In this document: positions 1 through 24,363 of the stretch, one piece after another | Layout: each line of letters starts with the position of its first letter | Numbering within the stretch: the stretch's first letter is position 1 | Source: Solirubrobacter pauli | Lineage (GTDB): Bacteria; Actinomycetota; Thermoleophilia; Solirubrobacterales; Solirubrobacteraceae | Length of the DNA stretch: 64,000 nucleotides | Assembly: GCF_003633755.1 (NCBI RefSeq) | Contig: NZ_RBIL01000001.1 | Location: 3,085,426-3,149,425 of the forward strand | Direction: 5' to 3' | The notes under the pieces: generated by a model | The model's input: only the letters and a program-made list of their open reading frames with translations | Told to the model about the DNA's origin: nothing | The model's database searches: none | Position numbers and translations under genes: made by a program

Positions 1-210
1 GCCGGCGCCCTGGTTGAACATCAGCACGGTCGGCGGGCGGCCGCCGGTCGAGGCGCTCGCGTGCGCCTCGTAGACCAGCTCGTGCTCGCGCAGCGCGTCG
101 AGGCGCTGCGCGACGGTCGACCGCGCGAGGCCGGTCTGCTTGACCAGGTCCGCCCGCGTCACGGCATCGCCGTTCCTGATCAGCCGGAGTAGCGTCCCTG
201 CTCCCGTCAC
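1..210 (-). CDS. ROK family transcriptional regulator, N-terminal part (cut by window edge)
   Basis: The complementary strand encodes the start of a third ROK-type regulator. After a GTG start come a winged-helix segment (LIRNGDAVTRADLVKQTGLA) and the TGGRPPTVL linker that leads into the sugar-kinase-like ROK domain; the rest lies outside the window. The segment is nearly the same as the N-termini of the next two genes, so this is a tandem paralogue set. The GTG at 208-210 is preferred because an AAGGGAG ribosome binding site lies at 218-224. An ATG at 237-239 opens a different frame that stops after ten codons in a GTGA overlap with this GTG. Confidence 0.85.
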   Translation of the reverse strand, partial: MTGAGTLLRLIRNGDAVTRADLVKQTGLARSTVAQRLDALREHELVYEAHASASTGGRPPTVLMFNQGAG

Positions 211-239
211 GACTTCGCTCCCTTCAGACCCAGCGCCAT
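207..239 (-). other. Ten-codon upstream ORF overlapping the first ROK start
   Basis: Reading from the ATG at 237-239, the frame encodes MALGLKGAKS and stops at TGA 207-209, sharing bases with the GTG start of the ROK gene. The ATG sits 7 bases after the TTAACT element shared by the ROK promoters, which fits a leaderless start. It could be a leader peptide that couples translation to the regulator, or chance. No protein family is recognisable. Confidence 0.35.
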
Positions 240-12560: not shown

Positions 12561-15500
12561 ATGGCCGATCGACGGTCCTTCGGCATGCCCATGCGGCATG
12601 TCGTCTTGTGCGCGGCGCTGTTGACGCTGGTGGCGTCACTGCTGGTGCCCGCCATCGCGAACGCGCAGGGCAGCAAGCGCGTTCTGCTCTACACCGGCAC
12701 CACCGGCTACCGCCACTCGGACGCGATCGACAACGGTCGTCAGCCGGTGCAGACGGCTGTCCAGGCCGCCGGATACACGGTGGACTGGGAAGACTGCACG
12801 AACAACGGCGGCGGCGCGAACAACTGCGACAACGCCAACAAGAACCCGCGCATCTTCACGGACGCCAACCTCGCCAAGTACGACGCGATCCTGCTGCTGA
12901 ACGCGTCCTCGAACGGCGTGCTGTGGAACGACGCGCAGAAGGCCGCGATCATCAAGTTCGTCCAGAACGGCGGCGGCATCGCCGGCGTCCACAACGCCAC
13001 GGACATGGGCACCAGCCAGGAGTCCTGGAACTGGTGGGACGGCAACAACGGCAACTCCGTGATCGGCGCGACGATGGCCGGCCACGCCGCGACCAGCCTC
13101 ACCAACATCGGTCAGATCCAGGTCGCCGACCACAACCACCTCGCCACCCGCGACCTCCCGGACCAGTACGGGGTCGGTGACGAGCACTACAACTTCCGCC
13201 GCAACGTCCGCGGCACGCACCACGTGCTCGCCACGATCGACGAGCGGACCTACACCCCTGGCGGCAACGCCATGGGCCAGGACCACCCGATCACCTGGTG
13301 CAAGCTCTACGACGGCGACAACGTCAACGACAACACGGGCACCAACAAGTCGTACAGCGACGGCCGCACGTGGGTCACGTCGATGGGCCACTTCGGCGCG
13401 CAGTACACCGAGAACGGCGGCAACAACAACCTCATCAAGACGATCGTCGGCGGTCTCCGCTGGGTCGCCGGTGAAGGCCGCAAGTCCGACTGCTCGGGCA
13501 CCGTCTGGTCGTCCTACACCCGCGAGGTCGTCGTCCCCGACGCCAACAACCCGATCGGGATCGACGTCGCCAAGGACGGCAAGGTCTACTGGTCCGAGAT
13601 CGGCAACCCGATCTCGCTCGAGTCCACGGGCTACGTGAAGATGTACGACCCGGCCAAGCCGGCCGGCAACAAGGCCACGGTCATCTCGATCCCGACGCGC
13701 GCCGACCACGGCAACTCCGAGGACGGCGTCCTGGGCATGAGCCTGCAGCCCGGCTTCGACCTGAGCGATCCGACCAAGCGCAACCTCTTCGTCTACTACT
13801 CGCCGCGCAATCCCGACTGGCCCATGTCCGGCAACCAGCAGGTCGTCGGCTACAACCAGATCAGCCGGTTCACGCTGACCGCCGACGGCGCCTCCGCGGT
13901 GGCCGGCTCCGAGCGCGTCATCCTGCGCGTCCCCAAGGCCAAGATCAGCGGCTCGCCGTCCGGCTTCCCGGGCGGTCCGACCGACTCGGGCCCCGGCCAC
14001 GTCGGTGGTGCCGGCCTGGACTTCGACTCCGCCGGCAACCTGTACCTGGGCGTCGGTGACGACGTGTCCCCGAACGCCACGGGCCACAACGGCTACGCCC
14101 CGATGGACTTCCGCGCCAAGGAGCGCTGGGACGCCCGCAAGACGGCCCAGAACTCCGCGGACCTGCGCGGCAAGATCCTGCGCATCACGCCGAAGCAGGG
14201 GGACATCCCTGCCGACGCCGCTCCCGGCGTCGACGCGACCTACGCGATCCCGGAGGGCAACCTCTTCCCGGTCGGCACGGCGAAGACCCGTCCCGAGATC
14301 TATGCGATGGGCTTCCGCCAGCCGTTCACGCTGCACACGGACCCGAAGAACCCGGGCGTCGTCGGCGCCGGCGAGTACTGCCACGACAACTCCTCCAACG
14401 CGGCCAACCGCTCCCCGGCGGGCACCTGCGAGTGGGACCTGCTCAACAAGCCGGGCAACCACGGCTGGCCGATGTGCGTCGGCAACAACTCCGCGGCGAA
14501 CTCCATGTTCAAGTGGAACTACGCGACGGGCAGCTCGACCGGCCAGCAGTACGACTGCAACCAGACGAGCCTGCCGTCCGACATCCGCTGGGCGCCGTCG
14601 GGGCAGACCCCGGTCGAGCCGACCTTCGACGGCCTGGACACCCTCCCGGGGCCGGTCGAGAAGGCCACGATCTGGAAGAAGTACAGCGGCGCGGCCGATG
14701 GCCAGAGCACCGCTGACTTCGGCAATCTCGACGCCGGCGGCATGCAGCCGCTCGCCGGTCCGATCTACCGCTACCCCGAGGGCACCGCGACCCAGGGCGC
14801 GTTCCCGCGCTACTACGACGGCTCGTGGCTGATCGGCAACCGCGGCTCGGACAACGGCTTCTGGAAAGAAGTCAAGATGCGCCAGGACAACAACCAGATG
14901 CTGCGGGTCAGCGACTGGCTGCCCTACAACGGCGGCGTCAACCCGTCCAACGCGAACTCGAGCCTCGTCATCGGCACGCAGTTCGGCCCGGACGGCGCCC
15001 TGTACATGTCGCGCTTCTCCGTCGGCTGCTGCCGTGCGCAGACGGGCACCGGCAACCAGAACCAGATCGTGAAGATCTCGTTCAACGTCCAGGACGAGTG
15101 CCTCACGGACACGAACGCGCCGAGCGTCTCGGCCGACGTGACCGGCCAGGCCTACCCGGACCGTGCCAACACCTACGTCAACAGCGCCAAGCTCAAGCTG
15201 TCGGCCACCGACTCCGGCTGCGCCGGCGTCAAGGGCATCGAGTACCGCCAGCAGGGCTCGACCGAGTGGTTGCCCTACACGACGGACGTCACGTTCGAAG
15301 AGGGCAAGACGTACACGATCGAGTACCGCGCGACCGACCGCAAGGACAACGTGTCGGCGGTCAAGACGGCCTCGTTCGAGATCCTCAAGATCAACGACTC
15401 GACGGCTCCGGTCGTCAACGCCGCCACCAGCGGCAACAAGGACCAGCGCAGCTACTTCGTCGGCTCCGCCACGCTCACGCTGACGGCGACCGACAACGAG

Positions 15501-18500
15501 GTCGGGGGCTCCGGCGTCCAGAAGGTCGAGTACCGCGTCAACGGCGGCGCCTGGACCCCGTACCTGGCTCCGGTCGCGTTCAACACGGCCGGCAACTACG
15601 AGGTCGAGTACCGCGCCACCGACAAGGTCAACAACACGTCGGAGATCAAGAAGGAGACGTTCCGCCTCCTCGGCGGCGCGGGCTGCACGCAGGCCCGCTC
15701 GGATGAGTTCGACGGCACGGCGCTCGGCTCGCAGTGGGTGCGTCACACGCGCAACGGCGGCACGCCGCTCAGCGCGCTGACGTTCTCGAACGGCCAGCTG
15801 CACATGCCGACGGCCGACTTCGAGCTCGACGCCGCCGCGACGAACACGTCCGTCGGCCCGGTGAACTTCATCGGCCAGGACCTCAACTCGCTCGGCGACA
15901 ACTGGCAGGTCGAGACCGAGTTCACCGTCAAGTACACCGGTGGTTGGCAGAACACCGGCCTGATCGTCTACAACGGCGACAACAACTTCTTCCGCTCGTC
16001 GATCACGCACAGCCTCTCGGCCGGCAACATCTACGTCGAGCAGTCGAAGGACAACCCCTCCAGCACGGAGGGCGCGCGTTCGCAGGCCGGCAGCAACATC
16101 ACGGTCGCGCCGAACAAGAACGACGCGATCACGATCCGCATGCGCTACACGCGCACCGCCGGCTCGAACACGGTCGTGCCGCAGTACCGGATCATGGCCC
16201 CCGCCTCCGCCGCCATGGCGGACTGGGCGGCCTTCGGTGGCGCGGCCAACTTCCTGGACCTCAACCCGACGTCCGGCGCTCGCCGTGACGCCGTCGGGTC
16301 CCGGATCGGCATCATCACCCAGTCCAACTTCCCGGGCACCACGGGCGCCAACCCGTACACGGGCACGCCCGGCACGGTGGACGTCAACTACTTCCGGGTC
16401 ACCCCGGATCCGCTGACCTGCGAGACGGACGCTCCGGCCACCACGGCCACCGTCGACCCGGCCGCTCCGGCCACGGGCGACACCTACGACCGCTCCGTCA
16501 AGGTCAACTTCTCCGCGACCGACACCGGCACCAACGCGGCGGGCGTCGAGAAGACCGAGTACCGCATCACCACCAACGGCGTCGCCGGCGAGTGGGTCAC
16601 CAAGACCAACGCCGCCAACGAGAGCCCGTTCGTGAACCAGATCACGGTCGCCAACAGCGGCACGCACCTCGTCGAGTTCCGCTCGACGGACAAGGCCGCC
16701 AACACCGAAGCGACCAAGTCGGTCACCTTCAAGGTCCAGCTGCCGGTCTGCGACCGCTCGGACGAGTTCGACGGCACGGAGATCCTGCCGCGCTGGATCC
16801 GTCACACGCGCAACGGCGGCACGCCCACCACGGGCCCGCTCGCGCCGACGGTCTCCGGCGGCCAGCTGCACCTGCCGACGAACGACCTCGAGATCGACGC
16901 CGCCGACAGCAACACCTCGGTCGGCCCGATCAACTTCCTCGGCCAGGACCTGCCCGCCCTGGGCAACGCCTGGACCGCGGAGACGCAGTTCACCGTGCAG
17001 TTCCGCGGTGGCTGGCAGAACATCGGCCTGGTCGTCTGGAACGGGGACAACAACTTCTTCCGCTCCACGATCACCCACAACCTGGGCTCTTCGGCGATCT
17101 TCGTCGAGAGCTCCAAGGACGCTCCGTCCTCGACCGAAGGTGCCCGCACCGGCGGCTCGAGCGCGAACATCCTGCCCAGCAACACCGGTCCGGTGACGAT
17201 CAAGATGCGCTACACGCGCGCCGCGAACGCCAACACCGTCACCGCGCAGTACCAGGTCGTCGCCCCGGCTTCGGCGGCCACCGCCGACTGGGTCAACTTC
17301 CCGACCATCACGGGCGGCCTGGACCTGAACCCGAGCAGCGGCGCGCGTCGTGACGCCACCGGCTCGCGGATCGGCCTGATCGCGCAGGACAACTGGCCGG
17401 CGGGCGGCACCTACCCGTCCAACGGCCAGCCGGCGATCGCGCACGTCGACTACTTCCGGGTCACCCCGGACAACTGCCCGACGGGCGCGGACCAGACGGC
17501 GCCGACGACGACCGCCACGGCGGCCCCGACGGCTCCGAACGGCACCAACGGCTGGTACACCTCGGACGTCAACGTGACCCTCGCGGGCAACGACGGCGCC
17601 AACGGCTCCGGCGTGGACAAGATCGAGTACAAGGTCGACGGCGGCGCCTTCGCCACCTACACCGCCCCGGTCGCGATCACGACCGCCGGCACCCACACGA
17701 TCGAGTTCCGCTCGACCGACAAGGCCGGCAACGTCGAGGCCACCAAGTCGCTGACGGTCAAGGTCGACAAGGTCGCGCCGACGACCACGGCGTCGCTCGA
17801 GCCGGCCACCGGCCCGTACACGGGCCCGGTCACGCTCACGCTGACGGCGGCCGACCAGCCCAACGCCTCCGGCGTGGCCAAGACCGAGTACATGGTCAAC
17901 ACCACCAGCCCGTTCAGCACCGTTGCGGCGGCCAAGCTGGCCAGCGCGGCGGCCGAGTGGGTCACCTACAACCCGGCGAGCAAGCCGCAGTTCAGCGCGC
18001 CGGGCAGCTACTCCGTCGACTACCGCTCGACGGACGCGGCCGGCAACGTGGAGACCGCCAAGACGGTGACCTTCACGATCGCCGGGCAGAGCAACGACAA
18101 GACCGCTCCGGTCACGACCAACACGCTCGACCCGGCCTCGCCCGGCGCCGGCCAGACGTACGTCGGCCCGGTCAAGGTGAAGTTCTCCGCGACCGACCCG
18201 GCCGGCTCGGGCGGCGGCTCCGCGGCCAAGACCGTCAAGGTCGAGGCGAGCGGTGACCGCTGGGCTCCGGACGCCGTGTCGCTCAACAACGGCGACAAGG
18301 TCGAGTGGAGCTTCCCGGCCGAGACCGCGACGTTCCCGCACGACGTGTGGGTGGTCGCGCCGGGCGGCAGCCAGGCCAACCCGACCCAGGTCACGAGCTC
18401 GATCGTGTTCCCGGGCGGCGATCCGGTCAGCAAGACGCTCGACCAGAACGGGGCGTGGACCTTCATCTGCAAGATCCACTCCGTCTACAACGCGGCCAGC

Positions 18501-19202
18501 ACCACCTGGACCGGCATGGTCGGCACGGCGACCGTCGCGGCGGCTCCGGCCGGCGAGACGCCGTCGGGCGTCGACTACACGGAGTACCGCGTGAAGACCG
18601 GCACGACCCAGGGTGACTGGGTCAAGGCCAACAACACGGCCGCGGCGAACCCGTTCGCGTCCGAGGTCACGGTCTCGGCGCTGGGCCAGCACACGGTCGA
18701 GTTCCGCTCGGTCGACAAGGCCGGCAACGTCGAGGCGACGAAGTCGGTCGGCTTCTCCATCAAGGAGGACACGGGCGACACCGTCACCGAGGACGCCGAC
18801 GTCAACGCCACGGTGCCGCGCACGCTCGGCATCTCGGTCAGCGGCGCCGCGACCTTCGGCGCGATCGTGCCGGGCGTGGACAAGGTCTACGACGCCTCGA
18901 CGAACGTGACCGTCACCTCGACGCTCACCGCCTCGAAGCTGACGATCCACGACTCCAGCGGGACCGCCCCCGGTCACCTGGTGTCCGGCACGTACGCGAT
19001 GCCGCAGGCGCTGCAGGTGGGCGTCGGCACCGCGTACTCGGCGCTCAGCGCCACCCCGACGACGTTGGGGACCTGGACCACGGCGCTGGCTTCCGAGCCG
19101 GTCACGCTGAAGTTCCGGCAGGCCGTCGCCAAGACCGACAAGCTCGTCGAGGGCAACTACAGCAAGCGCGTGACCCTGACCCTGGGGGCCACGACGCCGT
19201 AG
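12561..19202 (+). CDS. Giant secreted ThuA / glucose-sorbosone dehydrogenase / cupredoxin protein
   Basis: A 2213-residue exported protein. In order: signal peptide (1 to about 36, ending ANAQ); ThuA domain (about 40-305); PQQ-type glucose/sorbosone dehydrogenase propeller (about 330-848, with GHVGG carrying the likely catalytic His and GFRQPF the conserved Arg); two Ig-like repeats (about 853-1038); a concanavalin-like module beginning DEFDG (about 1046-1287); Ig-like repeat; a second DEFDG module (about 1399-1637); further Ig-like repeats; a cupredoxin domain (about 1891-1993, probable copper ligands His1927, Cys1970, His1973, Met1986) inserted within an Ig-like repeat; and a C-terminal beta domain ending NYSKRVTLTL. 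The combination suggests extracellular sugar oxidation with an internal electron acceptor. The start is set by a strong ribosome binding site. Confidence 0.93.
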   Translation: MADRRSFGMPMRHVVLCAALLTLVASLLVPAIANAQGSKRVLLYTGTTGYRHSDAIDNGRQPVQTAVQAAGYTVDWEDCTNNGGGANNCDNANKNPRIFTDANLAKYDAILLLNASSNGVLWNDAQKAAIIKFVQNGGGIAGVHNATDMGTSQESWNWWDGNNGNSVIGATMAGHAATSLTNIGQIQVADHNHLATRDLPDQYGVGDEHYNFRRNVRGTHHVLATIDERTYTPGGNAMGQDHPITWCKLYDGDNVNDNTGTNKSYSDGRTWVTSMGHFGAQYTENGGNNNLIKTIVGGLRWVAGEGRKSDCSGTVWSSYTREVVVPDANNPIGIDVAKDGKVYWSEIGNPISLESTGYVKMYDPAKPAGNKATVISIPTRADHGNSEDGVLGMSLQPGFDLSDPTKRNLFVYYSPRNPDWPMSGNQQVVGYNQISRFTLTADGASAVAGSERVILRVPKAKISGSPSGFPGGPTDSGPGHVGGAGLDFDSAGNLYLGVGDDVSPNATGHNGYAPMDFRAKERWDARKTAQNSADLRGKILRITPKQGDIPADAAPGVDATYAIPEGNLFPVGTAKTRPEIYAMGFRQPFTLHTDPKNPGVVGAGEYCHDNSSNAANRSPAGTCEWDLLNKPGNHGWPMCVGNNSAANSMFKWNYATGSSTGQQYDCNQTSLPSDIRWAPSGQTPVEPTFDGLDTLPGPVEKATIWKKYSGAADGQSTADFGNLDAGGMQPLAGPIYRYPEGTATQGAFPRYYDGSWLIGNRGSDNGFWKEVKMRQDNNQMLRVSDWLPYNGGVNPSNANSSLVIGTQFGPDGALYMSRFSVGCCRAQTGTGNQNQIVKISFNVQDECLTDTNAPSVSADVTGQAYPDRANTYVNSAKLKLSATDSGCAGVKGIEYRQQGSTEWLPYTTDVTFEEGKTYTIEYRATDRKDNVSAVKTASFEILKINDSTAPVVNAATSGNKDQRSYFVGSATLTLTATDNEVGGSGVQKVEYRVNGGAWTPYLAPVAFNTAGNYEVEYRATDKVNNTSEIKKETFRLLGGAGCTQARSDEFDGTALGSQWVRHTRNGGTPLSALTFSNGQLHMPTADFELDAAATNTSVGPVNFIGQDLNSLGDNWQVETEFTVKYTGGWQNTGLIVYNGDNNFFRSSITHSLSAGNIYVEQSKDNPSSTEGARSQAGSNITVAPNKNDAITIRMRYTRTAGSNTVVPQYRIMAPASAAMADWAAFGGAANFLDLNPTSGARRDAVGSRIGIITQSNFPGTTGANPYTGTPGTVDVNYFRVTPDPLTCETDAPATTATVDPAAPATGDTYDRSVKVNFSATDTGTNAAGVEKTEYRITTNGVAGEWVTKTNAANESPFVNQITVANSGTHLVEFRSTDKAANTEATKSVTFKVQLPVCDRSDEFDGTEILPRWIRHTRNGGTPTTGPLAPTVSGGQLHLPTNDLEIDAADSNTSVGPINFLGQDLPALGNAWTAETQFTVQFRGGWQNIGLVVWNGDNNFFRSTITHNLGSSAIFVESSKDAPSSTEGARTGGSSANILPSNTGPVTIKMRYTRAANANTVTAQYQVVAPASAATADWVNFPTITGGLDLNPSSGARRDATGSRIGLIAQDNWPAGGTYPSNGQPAIAHVDYFRVTPDNCPTGADQTAPTTTATAAPTAPNGTNGWYTSDVNVTLAGNDGANGSGVDKIEYKVDGGAFATYTAPVAITTAGTHTIEFRSTDKAGNVEATKSLTVKVDKVAPTTTASLEPATGPYTGPVTLTLTAADQPNASGVAKTEYMVNTTSPFSTVAAAKLASAAAEWVTYNPASKPQFSAPGSYSVDYRSTDAAGNVETAKTVTFTIAGQSNDKTAPVTTNTLDPASPGAGQTYVGPVKVKFSATDPAGSGGGSAAKTVKVEASGDRWAPDAVSLNNGDKVEWSFPAETATFPHDVWVVAPGGSQANPTQVTSSIVFPGGDPVSKTLDQNGAWTFICKIHSVYNAASTTWTGMVGTATVAAAPAGETPSGVDYTEYRVKTGTTQGDWVKANNTAAANPFASEVTVSALGQHTVEFRSVDKAGNVEATKSVGFSIKEDTGDTVTEDADVNATVPRTLGISVSGAATFGAIVPGVDKVYDASTNVTVTSTLTASKLTIHDSSGTAPGHLVSGTYAMPQALQVGVGTAYSALSATPTTLGTWTTALASEPVTLKFRQAVAKTDKLVEGNYSKRVTLTLGATTP

Positions 19203-19326: not shown

Positions 19327-22300
19327 ATGGCACGGAGTTGGGTAGGGCTGGTGCTTGCGCTGGTCGCGTTCGGGGCGTTGGCCCCGGCGACGGCCGCGGC
19401 GCAAGGGGAGACGGCGAAGGTCCTCATCTACTCGGGGACGACGGGCTACCGGCACGCGAACGGTGGTGAGGCGATCCAGCCCGCGGTCGTGGACCTGATC
19501 CAGGCGAAGCTGCAGGCCGCGGGCATCGCCAGCGACTACCGGACCTGCAGCGGGCACGGCACCGGTGCCGGCACGCTCCCGGGCTGTCGCAACACGACCG
19601 TCGGCAACCCCGCGATCTTCACCGCGGACAACCTCGCGCAGTACGACGCGATCTTCTTCTGGCAGGCGTCCTCGCTCAACCGCGGCGACACCACCAGCCC
19701 GCAGCTGTTCACCACGGGCGAGCAGGCCGCGATCGAGGCGTTCGCGCGCGCCGGCGGCGGCATCGCCGCGATGCACGCCTCGGTCACGATGGGCGCCGGC
19801 GCGGTCACGTGGCCCTGGTGGGACGCGCCGGGCGACAGCGCGATCGGCGCGCTGATGCCGGGCCACTCCGCCACCGACTCCAGCAACCTCGCGACGGTCG
19901 AGGTGTCAGACCGCCATCACCCCTCCACCAAGGACCTCCCCGACTCGTACCGCTTCGGCGACGAGCACTACACGTTCTCCTCGAACGTCCGCGGCACGCA
20001 CCACGTGCTGATGACGCTCGACGAGGAGAGCTACAACGTGGGCAGCGGCGTCACGCGCATGGGCGCGGACCACCCGATCGCCTGGTGCCGGATCTACGAG
20101 GGCGCGCGCATCTGGAGCTCGAGCCTCGGGCACTTCTCCGCCGCCTACCTGGAGAACGGCGGCGACAACCACCTCATCAAGCACCTGGTCGGCGGCGTCC
20201 GCTACGTCGCGGGCACGGCGGGCAAGGACTCCGACTGCGGCGCCACGGTGTGGACGAACTTCTCGCGCACCGTCCTCGCCGACGACCTGCGCGGCGCGAT
20301 CGGCATGGACATCGCGCGCGACGGCAAGGTCTACTGGACCGAGATCGGCAACCAGGCCCTCAACTCCGAGGGCCGGCTGCGGATGTACGACCCGCAGGCC
20401 AAGGCGACGAGCACGCTGCTGACGCTGCCGACCCGCGCCGACCATGAGTCCTCCAACGACGGCGTGCTCGGCATGGCCCTGGACCCGGGCTTCGCCACCA
20501 ACCGGCAGCTCTACATCTACTACTCGCCGCGCTTCGACCCGGGCTGCAACTCCTGCCTCGTCGTCGGCCACAACCTGATCAGCCGGTTCACGCTCAACGC
20601 GGCGGGGACCGCGGTCGTCACCGGCTCCGAGCAGGAGATCCTGCGCGTGCCCAAGGTCAAGGTCGGCAACGACAACAAGGACGGCGTCGCGGGCCAGAAC
20701 ACCTACAGCGCGCACGTCGGCGGGGGCACGCTGAGCTTCGACTCCGAGGGCAGCCTCTACATCGGCACCGGCGACGACGCCGATCCATTCGGCGCCGGCG
20801 GCAACGGCTACGCGCCGCTCGACCAGCGCTATCCGGAGCGCTACGACGCGCGCAACACCTCGGCCAACACGAACGACCTGCGCGGCAAGGTGCTGCGGAT
20901 CAAGCCGCTCGCGAACGCCGCCGGCGCCGCGGGCGTCGGCACGACGTACTCGATCCCGCCGGGCAACATGTTCGCCCCGGGGACCGCGAAGACGAAGCCC
21001 GAGATCTTCGCCATGGGCTTCCGCAACCCGTTCACGGTCATGGCCGACCCGGCGCATCCGGGGACGGTCGTGGTGGGCGACTATGGCCCGGACGCCGCCA
21101 CGAACTCCGCGACGCGGGGCCCCGCCGGCATCATCGAGTGGAACCGCGTGACCAAGCCCGGCTTCTACGGCTGGCCGCTGTGCGCGGGCGACAACTCGGC
21201 CGCGAACTCCTACTTCCGCTACACGTTCCCCAACGGCCCGTCCGGCGCGCGCTACGACTGCTCGACGGCTTCCATCCCGAACGAGTCGTCCTTCAACACC
21301 GGCCTGGCGGGCATCCCGGGCCCGGCGGTGGGCGCCGACGTCTGGCACAAGCGGACGGGCGATCACCCGGCGCGCTTCGCGATCCCGACCCGCTCGAGCC
21401 CGCAGGAGTCGATCACCGGCCCGATCTACCGGTACGATGCCGCGAACCCGTCGGACACCAAGTGGCCGGCGTACTACGACGGCGCCTGGTTCATCCTCGA
21501 CCGTGCGCAGAACTGGTGGCGCGAGGCACGCGTGCGCGACGACGGCTCGGGCCTGCTGCGCGTGAACGGCCTGTTCGGCTCGACGCAGTTCGGCGGGCCC
21601 AGCCACTCGTACCCGATCCCGGTCAAGTTCGGGCCCGACGGCTCGCTCTACGTCGCGACCTGGGATCACGACTGCTGCCGCGCGCAGCTGCCGGCGAGCC
21701 AACCGGGCCGGCTGATGCGGATCGACTTCATCGGCGACCAGGTGGACACCACCGCGCCGGTGGTGACGCCCGCGCTGACCGGCGCGCAGAACCCGTCCGG
21801 GGCGTACCTGGGCCGGGCGACGCTCGCCCTGGGCGCGACCGACAGCTCCGGCGTCTCACGCGTGGAGTACTCGCTCGACGGCACCGAGTGGACCCGCTAC
21901 ACGGAGCCGGTCGCGTTCACGACGCGCGGCACGTTCACCGTGCGGTTCCGCGCGACCGACCGGGCGGGCAACACCTCCGACGTCCAGCAGTCGACGTTCA
22001 CCGTCGTGGCGGGCGCGGCCTGCCTCCCGGCGCGGTCGGACGAGTTCAGCTCGACGCTGGACACGACGCGGTGGAGCTATCGCCACCCGACGACGCCCAC
22101 CGGCGCGCGGGCGCCCAGCGTGTCCAACGGCAGCCTCGTGCTGCCGCTCGGCGCGTACTCACTCGACCTGACCCGCACCGGCCCGTCGGCCATCCTCGGC
22201 CAGCCGCTGCCCGACGGCGACTTCGAGGTCGTCACCAAGATCACCTCGCCCGGGTTGGGCGGTGACAACGGCGGCCAGGGCAGCACCTACGCCCAGGTCG

Positions 22301-24363
22301 GCTTCAAGGTCTTCCAGACCAACGACAACTGGATCAAGGTCGCGCACACGCGCAACGCCGACAACAACCCGACCGGCACCGTCGCGACGTACTTCGAGAT
22401 GACGACGGAGACGGGCGGAACGCGCACGCTCGGCGCGCGCCAGGGCCTCGGCACCGGCAACCTGCCGACGTGGTGGATGCGCATCACGCGCGACGGCAAC
22501 ATCATCCGCGGTGCGTACTCGCTGACCGACCCCGACGGTGGTGGCGGCGGCGCGACGTGGATCGAGATGGGCGTCAACGCCAACCTCGACACGCTGCTGC
22601 CGGCGTCCGCCGGCCCGCGCTACCTGTCGCTCTACGGCGGCAACGGGTCGGGTTCGGCGAGCTTCGACTACGTGCGGTTCAACCCGGACGCGCCGACGGA
22701 CCAGTCGGCGCCGGTGTCCACGCACACCGTGGCCGCCGCCGACGGCACGAGCGGCTGGCACCGCACGCCGGTCGACGTGACCGTGACCGCGGCCGACGAC
22801 GGCGAGTGCGTCGCGGGTGTGGACAAGACCGAGTACCGGGTCGGCACCGGCGCGTTCGCCGCCTACACGGCGCCGATCCGCGTGGCCGACGACGGCACGC
22901 ACGCGATCGAGTACCGCTCGATCGACAAGGCCGGCAACGCCGAGACGGCGAAGGCGCTCACCGTCAAGCTCGACGGCACGGCGCCGACGACGACCGCGAG
23001 CACCGACCCGTCCGGCGCCGGGCCGCACCCGGGTCCGGTCACGCTGACGCTGAACGCGGCTGACGCGACCTCCGGCGTGGCGCGGACCGAGTACCGCGTC
23101 GACGACGCCGGCGCGTTCGCGGGCGCAGCCGCCGCCGCGCTCGCGGCGCCCGCGGAGTGGCAGGTCTACTCCGCGGCGAGCAAGCCCACGTTCACCGCCG
23201 ACGGCAGCTACGCGATCGAGTACCGCTCGACCGACGTCGCCGGGAACGCCGAGACCCCGAAGACCGTGACGTTCGCGGTCGGCACGCCGACGAGCGACGC
23301 CGGCGCCCCGGTCACCACGGCGGCGCTCGACCCCGCGCTGCCCGGCGCCGGGCAGGCGTACACCGGCCCGGTGACGGTGCGGTTCTCGGCGCGTGACGTC
23401 GCGCCGGCGGCCAACGTCGACGTCGACGCCAACGGCACCGCGTGGACGCCGTCGGCGGTGACCCTGACCGCGGGCGACACGGTCACGTGGCGCTTCGGCG
23501 CGACCGCGGGCAGCGCCCACGACGTGTGGCTCGTCCCGCCGGGCGGCGATCCGAGCCCGACGGGCCCGGATCTGACGAAGGTCTCCGACATCGTGTTCCC
23601 GGGCGGCGCACCCGTCTCGCGCGCGCTCACCCAGACCGGCACGTACACGTTCGTGTGCCGGCTGCACGCGGCGTTCACCGGCGGCGCGTGGACCGGCATG
23701 GTCGGCACGGCGGCGGTCGCCGCGGGTGGCGGCAGCGGCGTCGACTTCACCGAGCACCGCGTCGACGGCGGCGCGTGGGCGAAGGCGACCAACACGGCCG
23801 CGGCGAGCCCCTTCGCGTCCGAGGTGACGGTCGCGGCGCTGGGCCGGCACACGGTCGAGTTCCGCTCGGTCGACAAGGCCGGCAACGTCGAGGCGACGAA
23901 GTCGGTCGAGTTCTCGATCGAGGAGGACACGGGCGACGCCGTCACCGAGGACGGCGACGTCACCGCCACGGTCTCGCGCGCGCTGGGCCTCTCCGTGAGC
24001 GGCGCGGCGACCTTCGGCGCGATCGTGCCCGGCGTGGACAGGGTCTACGACGCGGAGACGCTGATCACCGTCACTTCGACGCTGCCGGCGACGAAGCTGA
24101 CGGTCCACGATGCCGGCGCCACCGCCACCGCCGGCCATCTGGTCTCCGGCTCGCACGCGATGCCGCAGGCGCTGCAGGTCGGCGTCGGGACCGCGTTCTC
24201 GGCGCTCAGCGGCACACCGGCGACGCTCGCGACGTGGACGACGGCGCTCGGGTGGGAGCCCGTCACGCTCAAGTTCCGGCAGCCCGTCGCGAAGACCGAC
24301 CGGCTGGTCGAGGGCAACTACAGCAAGCGCGTGACCCTGACCTTGGGGGCCACGACGCCGTAG
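19327..24363 (+). CDS. Giant secreted ThuA / glucose-sorbosone dehydrogenase / cupredoxin protein, paralogue
   Basis: A 1678-residue paralogue of the preceding gene. Signal peptide (1 to about 27, ATAAAQ); ThuA domain (about 30-290); dehydrogenase propeller (about 322-800, with AHVGGG and GFRNPF); Ig-like repeat; one DEF-type concanavalin-like module (about 901-1120; the first protein has two); two Ig-like repeats; an Ig-like repeat split by a cupredoxin domain (ligands His1398, Cys1444, His1447, Met1458); and the same C-terminal beta domain ending NYSKRVTLTLGATTP. The ATG at 19327 has GGGGAGAGG just upstream. It probably has the same chemistry with a different substrate. Confidence 0.93.
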   Translation: MARSWVGLVLALVAFGALAPATAAAQGETAKVLIYSGTTGYRHANGGEAIQPAVVDLIQAKLQAAGIASDYRTCSGHGTGAGTLPGCRNTTVGNPAIFTADNLAQYDAIFFWQASSLNRGDTTSPQLFTTGEQAAIEAFARAGGGIAAMHASVTMGAGAVTWPWWDAPGDSAIGALMPGHSATDSSNLATVEVSDRHHPSTKDLPDSYRFGDEHYTFSSNVRGTHHVLMTLDEESYNVGSGVTRMGADHPIAWCRIYEGARIWSSSLGHFSAAYLENGGDNHLIKHLVGGVRYVAGTAGKDSDCGATVWTNFSRTVLADDLRGAIGMDIARDGKVYWTEIGNQALNSEGRLRMYDPQAKATSTLLTLPTRADHESSNDGVLGMALDPGFATNRQLYIYYSPRFDPGCNSCLVVGHNLISRFTLNAAGTAVVTGSEQEILRVPKVKVGNDNKDGVAGQNTYSAHVGGGTLSFDSEGSLYIGTGDDADPFGAGGNGYAPLDQRYPERYDARNTSANTNDLRGKVLRIKPLANAAGAAGVGTTYSIPPGNMFAPGTAKTKPEIFAMGFRNPFTVMADPAHPGTVVVGDYGPDAATNSATRGPAGIIEWNRVTKPGFYGWPLCAGDNSAANSYFRYTFPNGPSGARYDCSTASIPNESSFNTGLAGIPGPAVGADVWHKRTGDHPARFAIPTRSSPQESITGPIYRYDAANPSDTKWPAYYDGAWFILDRAQNWWREARVRDDGSGLLRVNGLFGSTQFGGPSHSYPIPVKFGPDGSLYVATWDHDCCRAQLPASQPGRLMRIDFIGDQVDTTAPVVTPALTGAQNPSGAYLGRATLALGATDSSGVSRVEYSLDGTEWTRYTEPVAFTTRGTFTVRFRATDRAGNTSDVQQSTFTVVAGAACLPARSDEFSSTLDTTRWSYRHPTTPTGARAPSVSNGSLVLPLGAYSLDLTRTGPSAILGQPLPDGDFEVVTKITSPGLGGDNGGQGSTYAQVGFKVFQTNDNWIKVAHTRNADNNPTGTVATYFEMTTETGGTRTLGARQGLGTGNLPTWWMRITRDGNIIRGAYSLTDPDGGGGGATWIEMGVNANLDTLLPASAGPRYLSLYGGNGSGSASFDYVRFNPDAPTDQSAPVSTHTVAAADGTSGWHRTPVDVTVTAADDGECVAGVDKTEYRVGTGAFAAYTAPIRVADDGTHAIEYRSIDKAGNAETAKALTVKLDGTAPTTTASTDPSGAGPHPGPVTLTLNAADATSGVARTEYRVDDAGAFAGAAAAALAAPAEWQVYSAASKPTFTADGSYAIEYRSTDVAGNAETPKTVTFAVGTPTSDAGAPVTTAALDPALPGAGQAYTGPVTVRFSARDVAPAANVDVDANGTAWTPSAVTLTAGDTVTWRFGATAGSAHDVWLVPPGGDPSPTGPDLTKVSDIVFPGGAPVSRALTQTGTYTFVCRLHAAFTGGAWTGMVGTAAVAAGGGSGVDFTEHRVDGGAWAKATNTAAASPFASEVTVAALGRHTVEFRSVDKAGNVEATKSVEFSIEEDTGDAVTEDGDVTATVSRALGLSVSGAATFGAIVPGVDRVYDAETLITVTSTLPATKLTVHDAGATATAGHLVSGSHAMPQALQVGVGTAFSALSGTPATLATWTTALGWEPVTLKFRQPVAKTDRLVEGNYSKRVTLTLGATTP

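What the first reader, a model, noticed from the sequence alone, without database searches (positions are those of the whole stretch)
18121..18770. Cupredoxin domain inserted inside an Ig-like repeat
The Ig-like repeat normally runs from VKVNFSATD straight to AGVEKTEYR (seen at about 16,500-16,570). In the last repeat the same flanks (VKVKFSATD and SGVDYTEYR) are separated by about 100 residues forming the cupredoxin. The same insertion occurs in the second giant (23,320-23,930), so it predates the duplication.
Basis: seen in the sequence. Interest (0 to 1): 0.75.

Follow-up and report, generated by a model that had tools for sequence, protein, structure and literature searches.

The report
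Copper domain nested inside Ig repeat
Two neighbouring giant secreted proteins of a Solirubrobacter soil bacterium carry an intact plastocyanin-like copper domain plugged into one loop of their last Ig-like repeat; the same loop received a copper domain in a distant lineage of the same kind of sugar-oxidising giant, apparently independently.

Summary
In both giants the last OmpL47-type Ig repeat is split: its first third (model positions 1-34) and its remainder (39-91) are separated by 122 and 112 residues that are a plastocyanin-like cupredoxin with all four type-1 copper ligands. With the insert left out, each split repeat scores as one complete domain (92 and 88 bits). The predicted structure (pLDDT 94.7) shows a cupredoxin plus one FN3/Ig-like sandwich closed from both flanks, with weaker confidence only at the linkers. 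The nest occurs in all 7 Solirubrobacter genomes held (2-6 copies each), in one MAG of another family, and in 3 of 4 genomes of one genus outside the class. A tree test rejects a single origin of the nested cupredoxins (p-AU 0.0022), so at least two insertions into the same loop are likely. Nested copies sit in ThuA + GSDH-propeller proteins; relatives carry an un-nested cupredoxin or a cytochrome c on the same propeller, so I read the cupredoxin as an on-board electron acceptor (inferred, not shown). The Ig repeats also host a 3-keto-disaccharide hydrolase domain in another loop. Domain insertion as such is known; this pairing and its recurrence are a new variant.

The parts
12561..19202 (+). 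first giant (P0001, 2213 aa): signal-like N-terminus, ThuA, sugar-dehydrogenase-like propeller region, Ig (OmpL47-type) repeats, ConA-like domains, last Ig with nested cupredoxin, C-terminal domain
19327..24363 (+). second giant (P0002; ORF from 19285, probable ATG 19327): ThuA, GSDH propeller, Ig repeats, ConA-like domain, last Ig with nested cupredoxin, C-terminal domain
12678..13466 (+). ThuA domain of first giant
   Evidence: Pfam PF06283 E 3.5e-39
19417..20208 (+). ThuA domain of second giant
   Evidence: Pfam PF06283 E 5.7e-35
20368..21192 (+). GSDH (soluble quinoprotein glucose dehydrogenase-like) propeller segment of second giant
   Evidence: Pfam PF07995 E 5.3e-17; weak PDB match to quinoprotein glucose dehydrogenase 1c9u
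16428..16712 (+). unbroken Ig repeat, the nearest relative of the split host (55-56% identity)
18096..18197 (+). N-terminal part of the split host Ig repeat (strands A-B), first giant
   Evidence: HMM 1-34; strands 6-12, 21-23, 26-33
18198..18563 (+). insert of 122 residues; cupredoxin core about 18228-18542
18339..18341 (+). copper ligand His (model residue 82)
   Evidence: invariant in A5 and A8; aligned with plastocyanin
18468..18470 (+). copper ligand Cys (model residue 125)
18477..18479 (+). copper ligand His (model residue 128)
18516..18518 (+). axial copper ligand Met (model residue 141)
   Evidence: invariant in A5; aligned with plastocyanin
18564..18764 (+). C-terminal part of the split host Ig repeat (strands C-G), first giant
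   Evidence: HMM 39-91; strands 159-168 to 216-223
23296..23397 (+). N-terminal part of split host Ig, second giant
23398..23733 (+). insert of 112 residues (cupredoxin), second giant; ligand codons start at His 23518, Cys 23656, His 23665, Met 23698
23734..23922 (+). C-terminal part of split host Ig, second giant

Best explanation
A type-1 copper domain of the plastocyanin family has been inserted into the B-C loop of an FN3/Ig-like (OmpL47-type) spacer repeat. Shown by sequence and prediction: the host repeat closes into one sandwich around an intact cupredoxin whose four copper ligands are kept. Inferred: cupredoxin N- and C-termini lie at the pole opposite the copper (established plastocyanin structure), so insertion through both ends tethers the domain by two short linkers and points the copper away from the stalk. 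Inferred: in these secreted ThuA + quinoprotein-dehydrogenase-like giants the copper site takes electrons one at a time from the sugar-oxidising propeller, or relays them to an outside acceptor, standing where relatives carry a terminal cupredoxin or a cytochrome c. The insertion most likely happened at least twice in this protein class. I put the nesting itself at about 0.97, recurrent origin at about 0.7, and the electron-relay role at about 0.5.
For: Nesting. Copper ligands invariant; in the distant lineage H, C, H are kept and Gln stands at the Met place. Conserved: 7/7 Solirubrobacter genomes with 2-6 copies each, a MAG of another family, and 3 of 4 genomes of one genus outside the class. 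Recurrence: one clade for all nested cupredoxins rejected, p-AU 0.0022; one clade for the Solirubrobacterales ones not rejected, p 0.355. Coupling to the dehydrogenase: ThuA in every cupredoxin-bearing giant scanned, with GSDH in all except P0001 (below cut-off) and a frame cut by a contig end. The same genome has an un-nested version, cupredoxin at the N-terminus followed by ThuA and GSDH (L119). A haloarchaeal ThuA-GSDH protein ends in a cupredoxin and a Runella GSDH protein carries a cytochrome c. The propeller of the distant homologue aligns with PQQ-type dehydrogenase structures including the HxGG motif. A sugar-catabolism gene neighbourhood surrounds the window genes.
Against: No copper binding, redox activity or PQQ binding has been measured. 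Several ThuA-GSDH relatives have no redox domain at all, so the cupredoxin is not essential to the class. A single PQQ-biosynthesis search (pqqC) found nothing, but its control was uninformative. Inter-domain orientation is uncertain (pTM 0.61) and the distance to the propeller is unknown. The insert of the first giant is only loosely constrained outside the ligands (dN/dS 0.5-0.8). The tree rests on 111 columns.
Confidence: 0.55

Rival explanations
1. The nested cupredoxin binds copper for another purpose (copper capture, stability, or electron exchange with an unrelated partner) and is not coupled to the GSDH propeller on the same chain.
For: No direct evidence of coupling; some relatives lack any redox domain; the genome holds 19 Copper-bind matches, many in other proteins.
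Against: Cupredoxins are found repeatedly with ThuA-GSDH in different arrangements and lineages, and a cytochrome c replaces them in one.
Confidence: 0.25
2. Nested placement is neutral domain shuffling: a cupredoxin landed in a loop that tolerates insertions, with no benefit from nesting over tandem placement.
For: Un-nested arrangements coexist in the same genus and genome (L035/L152, L119). The same repeats also tolerate other guests.
Against: Kept in 7 of 7 genomes with 2-6 copies, the same loop each time, and apparently two origins.
Confidence: 0.35
3. One single insertion event, inherited or passed between the classes, with the distant-lineage cupredoxin diverged so far that the short alignment misplaces it.
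For: Same loop and same protein class in both lineages; only 111 columns and long branches.
Against: p-AU 0.0022 against one clade; the distant copies have shorter linkers and Gln instead of Met.
Confidence: 0.28
4. The two flanks are separate degenerate Ig fragments and the cupredoxin is an ordinary tandem domain between them.
For: None found; no call supports it.
Against: Complementary HMM coverage 1-34 and 39-91, one 92-bit domain when joined; NCAM FN3 alignment across both halves, 92 residues, model range 1..224.
Confidence: 0.02

Closest known systems
Plastocyanin / type-1 copper proteins (PF00127)
   Same: Greek-key fold over residues 45-148 (Z 12.3 to 1bxu), four ligands His, Cys, His, Met in the family order
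   Different: Embedded inside another domain of a giant secreted protein; in the distant lineage Gln replaces Met
OmpL47-type Ig-like repeat (NCBIfam NF047446), fold like FN3/Ig
   Same: The giants match NF047446; the host repeat matches the HMM of the unbroken repeats and aligns to NCAM FN3
   Different: B-C loop replaced by a whole domain; the prediction is a sandwich, not the beta-barrel of the family name
RrgA pilus adhesin of pneumococcus (PMC5333627)
   Same: Elongated surface protein in which one domain is inserted into another and the host is built from both flanks
   Different: There D3 is inserted in D2 and D2/D3 in D1; D2 is called non Ig-like; no copper domain
Catalogue of domain insertions (Schaeffer et al. 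2026, PMC13114784)
   Same: A1-B-A2 architecture; insertions in 20% of multidomain proteins
   Different: Main text names no cupredoxin or Ig host; inserts are usually smaller than hosts (median 115 vs 199), here the insert is about as large as or larger than its host
ThuA / PQQ-type sugar dehydrogenase fusion proteins (PF06283 + PF07995)
   Same: Same N-terminal order ThuA then propeller
   Different: Others have no redox domain, a terminal cupredoxin or a cytochrome c

Membership tests
Type-1 copper protein (plastocyanin/azurin, PF00127) | Sequence profile match | tested here: met
   Second giant 26 bits against cut-off 21.2; first giant 19.6 bits, just under, but 24.7 and over in the genome search; profile of the nest vs PDB plastocyanin E 1e-9
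Type-1 copper protein (plastocyanin/azurin, PF00127) | His, Cys, His and axial Met ligands | tested here: met
   H82, C125, H128, M141 invariant in 17 sequences
Type-1 copper protein (plastocyanin/azurin, PF00127) | Binds copper, blue absorption | not testable with these tools
   needs protein
OmpL47-type Ig repeat (NF047446) | Repeat profile covered by one domain once the insert is left out | tested here: met
   92 and 88 bits, model 1-91, with an HMM of the window's own unbroken repeats; NF047446 itself hits the giants
Nested domain insertion (A1-B-A2) | Both flanks form one domain in a structure | tested here: met
   predicted model only: FN3 chain 2vkx_E aligned to 92 residues, model range 1..224
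PQQ-dependent soluble sugar dehydrogenase (PF07995) | Profile match of the propeller | tested here: met
   second giant E 5.3e-17; the first giant shows no Pfam match at E 0.1
PQQ-dependent soluble sugar dehydrogenase (PF07995) | PQQ binding and sugar oxidation | not testable with these tools
   only alignment of the HxGG motif in the distant homologue

The most novel reading that the evidence does not exclude
The OmpL47-type Ig repeats of these giants act as reusable sockets that accept whole functional domains at distinct loops (cupredoxin in B-C, 3-keto-disaccharide hydrolase or ConA-like domains after strand C), filled independently in several lineages, so that catalysis and electron transfer are mounted on the spacer stalk itself.
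Probability: 0.45. Interest if true: 0.65.

Novelty: new variant of a known kind. Interest (0 to 1): 0.52.

Why it matters
It is a clear natural case of a redox domain mounted inside a spacer repeat rather than beside it, apparently reached more than once in the same enzyme class. It gives a testable system for asking whether two-point tethering improves electron transfer or stability, and it suggests that cupredoxins and cytochromes c are interchangeable built-in acceptors for ThuA / quinoprotein sugar dehydrogenases.

Tried and rejected
Ordinary tandem cupredoxin: rejected by HMM coverage and model. Single origin for all nests: rejected at p-AU 0.0022, with the caveat of a short alignment. 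Structure of the Ig holding the 3-keto-disaccharide hydrolase: predicted from 6 similar sequences, pLDDT 57.6, inconclusive. A CHRD-like domain inside an Ig of the distant lineage: weak (CHRD E 0.02-0.034; N flank 0.7 bits at best), not claimed. PQQ biosynthesis gene pqqC: nothing found, but the control was silent too. First alignment A3 had one sequence on the wrong strand and was replaced by A4. Literature searches for a cupredoxin inserted into an Ig or FN3 domain returned no papers, which is no proof of absence. No family was found for the C-terminal domain 18765-19202.

Full report
Observation. P0001 (12561-19202) and P0002 (19285-24363, probable start 19327) each carry ThuA, a sugar-dehydrogenase-like propeller (Pfam GSDH in P0002; no Pfam match in P0001), several Ig-like repeats that NCBIfam calls OmpL47-type, ConA-like domains, and a last Ig repeat with a copper-binding match. 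An HMM from the eight unbroken repeats covers the N flank with positions 1-34 and the C flank with 39-91. Leaving out the insert gives one domain of 92 or 88 bits, while the insert itself scores about zero. The gap between the two matches falls in the B-C loop.

Structure. AlphaFold2 on the split repeat of P0001 with 16 homologues gave mean pLDDT 94.7; the dips are at the linkers (residues 31-40 and 151-160). pTM 0.61 means the relative orientation is not fixed. Plastocyanins align to residues 45-148 (Z up to 12.3). An FN3 chain of NCAM aligns with 92 residues over the range 1 to 224, which I read as the two outer parts together. The nested-family profile finds plastocyanins in the PDB with His, Cys, His and Met in register; these four are invariant in 17 nested sequences.

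Distribution. A third nested copy lies 178 kb away in the same genome, in a 3011-residue frame. All 7 Solirubrobacter genomes held have 2 to 6 nested copies, two of the six in one genome being cut by contig ends. Named species include S. phytolaccae, S. deserti, S. taibaiensis, S. soli and S. pratensis. In 232 genomes of the order, full-length nests appear only in this genus and in one MAG of another family; all other hits are un-nested cupredoxins or Ig pieces. In 396 genomes of the phylum, two from one genus outside the class also carry the nest, and 3 of 4 genomes of that genus do. In that lineage the axial Met is Gln.

History. The two host repeats of the window are closest to each other (78%) and next to the unbroken repeat at 16428-16712 (56 and 55%). 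P0001-type and P0002-type cupredoxins fall in separate groups shared by several species, so insertion most likely predates the duplication and the species. A tree of 70 cupredoxins puts the nested ones of the order together (with two free copies unresolved among them and an un-nested relative, L035, just outside) and those of the distant lineage elsewhere. The AU test rejects one clade for all nested copies (p 0.0022) but not for those of the order (p 0.355). With 111 columns this is good but not final evidence for two insertions.

Other guests. In the third paralogue and its orthologues, the repeat before the cupredoxin-bearing one holds a 3-keto-disaccharide hydrolase domain (PF06439, E 2e-28 to 2e-30) after strand C, with host coverage 1-64 and 59-91. 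A more distant case is in the same genome (L017), and an Elusimicrobia protein has a GH43_C2-type domain in the same region. Predicted structure for this nest was of low confidence, so it rests on sequence only.

Function. Every cupredoxin-bearing giant of this kind that was scanned carries ThuA, and nearly all carry GSDH by Pfam. The same genome has a giant with the cupredoxin first, then ThuA and GSDH. Among relatives found on plasmids and megaplasmids, a Haladaptatus protein ends in a cupredoxin, a Runella protein has a cytochrome c, a Natronococcus protein is fused to a 3-keto-disaccharide hydrolase, and four actinomycete or Paenibacillus proteins have none of these. The distant-lineage propeller aligns with PQQ-type dehydrogenase structures including the HxGG motif. 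The window genes sit among a sugar-binding protein, xylose-isomerase-like proteins, a Gfo/Idh/MocA oxidoreductase, DUF993 and a LacI regulator. I therefore favour an extracellular sugar or glycoside oxidation system whose electrons pass through the copper site. Copper loading, PQQ, substrate and electron path are all unmeasured.

Comparison and novelty. Domain insertion is common (PMC13114784) and an inserted domain in a surface stalk is known in RrgA (PMC5333627). I found no report of a cupredoxin inside an Ig or FN3 domain in the library searched. The finding is a new variant of a known kind; its recurrence and its link to one enzyme class are what make it interesting.

Noticed in passing
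L013 12351-13289 (own genome G000:C1, third paralogue); also L053, L054, L055, L057, L059, L061: A 3-keto-disaccharide hydrolase domain (PF06439) is inserted inside an Ig repeat after strand C, in the repeat just before the cupredoxin-bearing one.
   Followed up: partly
L119 2-7270 (-), own genome G000:C1 about 1.79 Mb: Giant with cupredoxin at the N-terminus, then ThuA, GSDH, PKD, CBM6, several ConA-like domains and a second ThuA: an un-nested counterpart.
   Followed up: partly
window 18765-19202 and 23923-24363: C-terminal domain of about 145 residues shared by many Solirubrobacter giants (ends in FTLxxTTP-like), no confident family; perhaps a sorting or surface-attachment domain.
   Followed up: partly
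L148, L149, L119, L013, L156 propellers: Vicinal Cys-Cys directly before the conserved propeller His (CCH) in many of these GSDH domains, but absent at that place in P0001 and P0002.
   Followed up: no
L072, L073 (distant lineage): A CHRD/SOD-like stretch seems to sit near the A-B part of another Ig repeat; statistics too weak to call it nested.
   Followed up: partly
L068 about residues 3161-3456 of the frame (Elusimicrobia): GH43_C2 ConA-like domain between two complementary Ig parts, in another phylum.
   Followed up: partly
L051 14427-15020: Nested copy that has lost the long loop after strand C of the host repeat (NT..A.PF stretch missing).
   Followed up: no
L118 3727-5592 and L106: Free cupredoxin genes within about 8 kb downstream of the third nested paralogue, one with two cupredoxin domains.
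   Followed up: no
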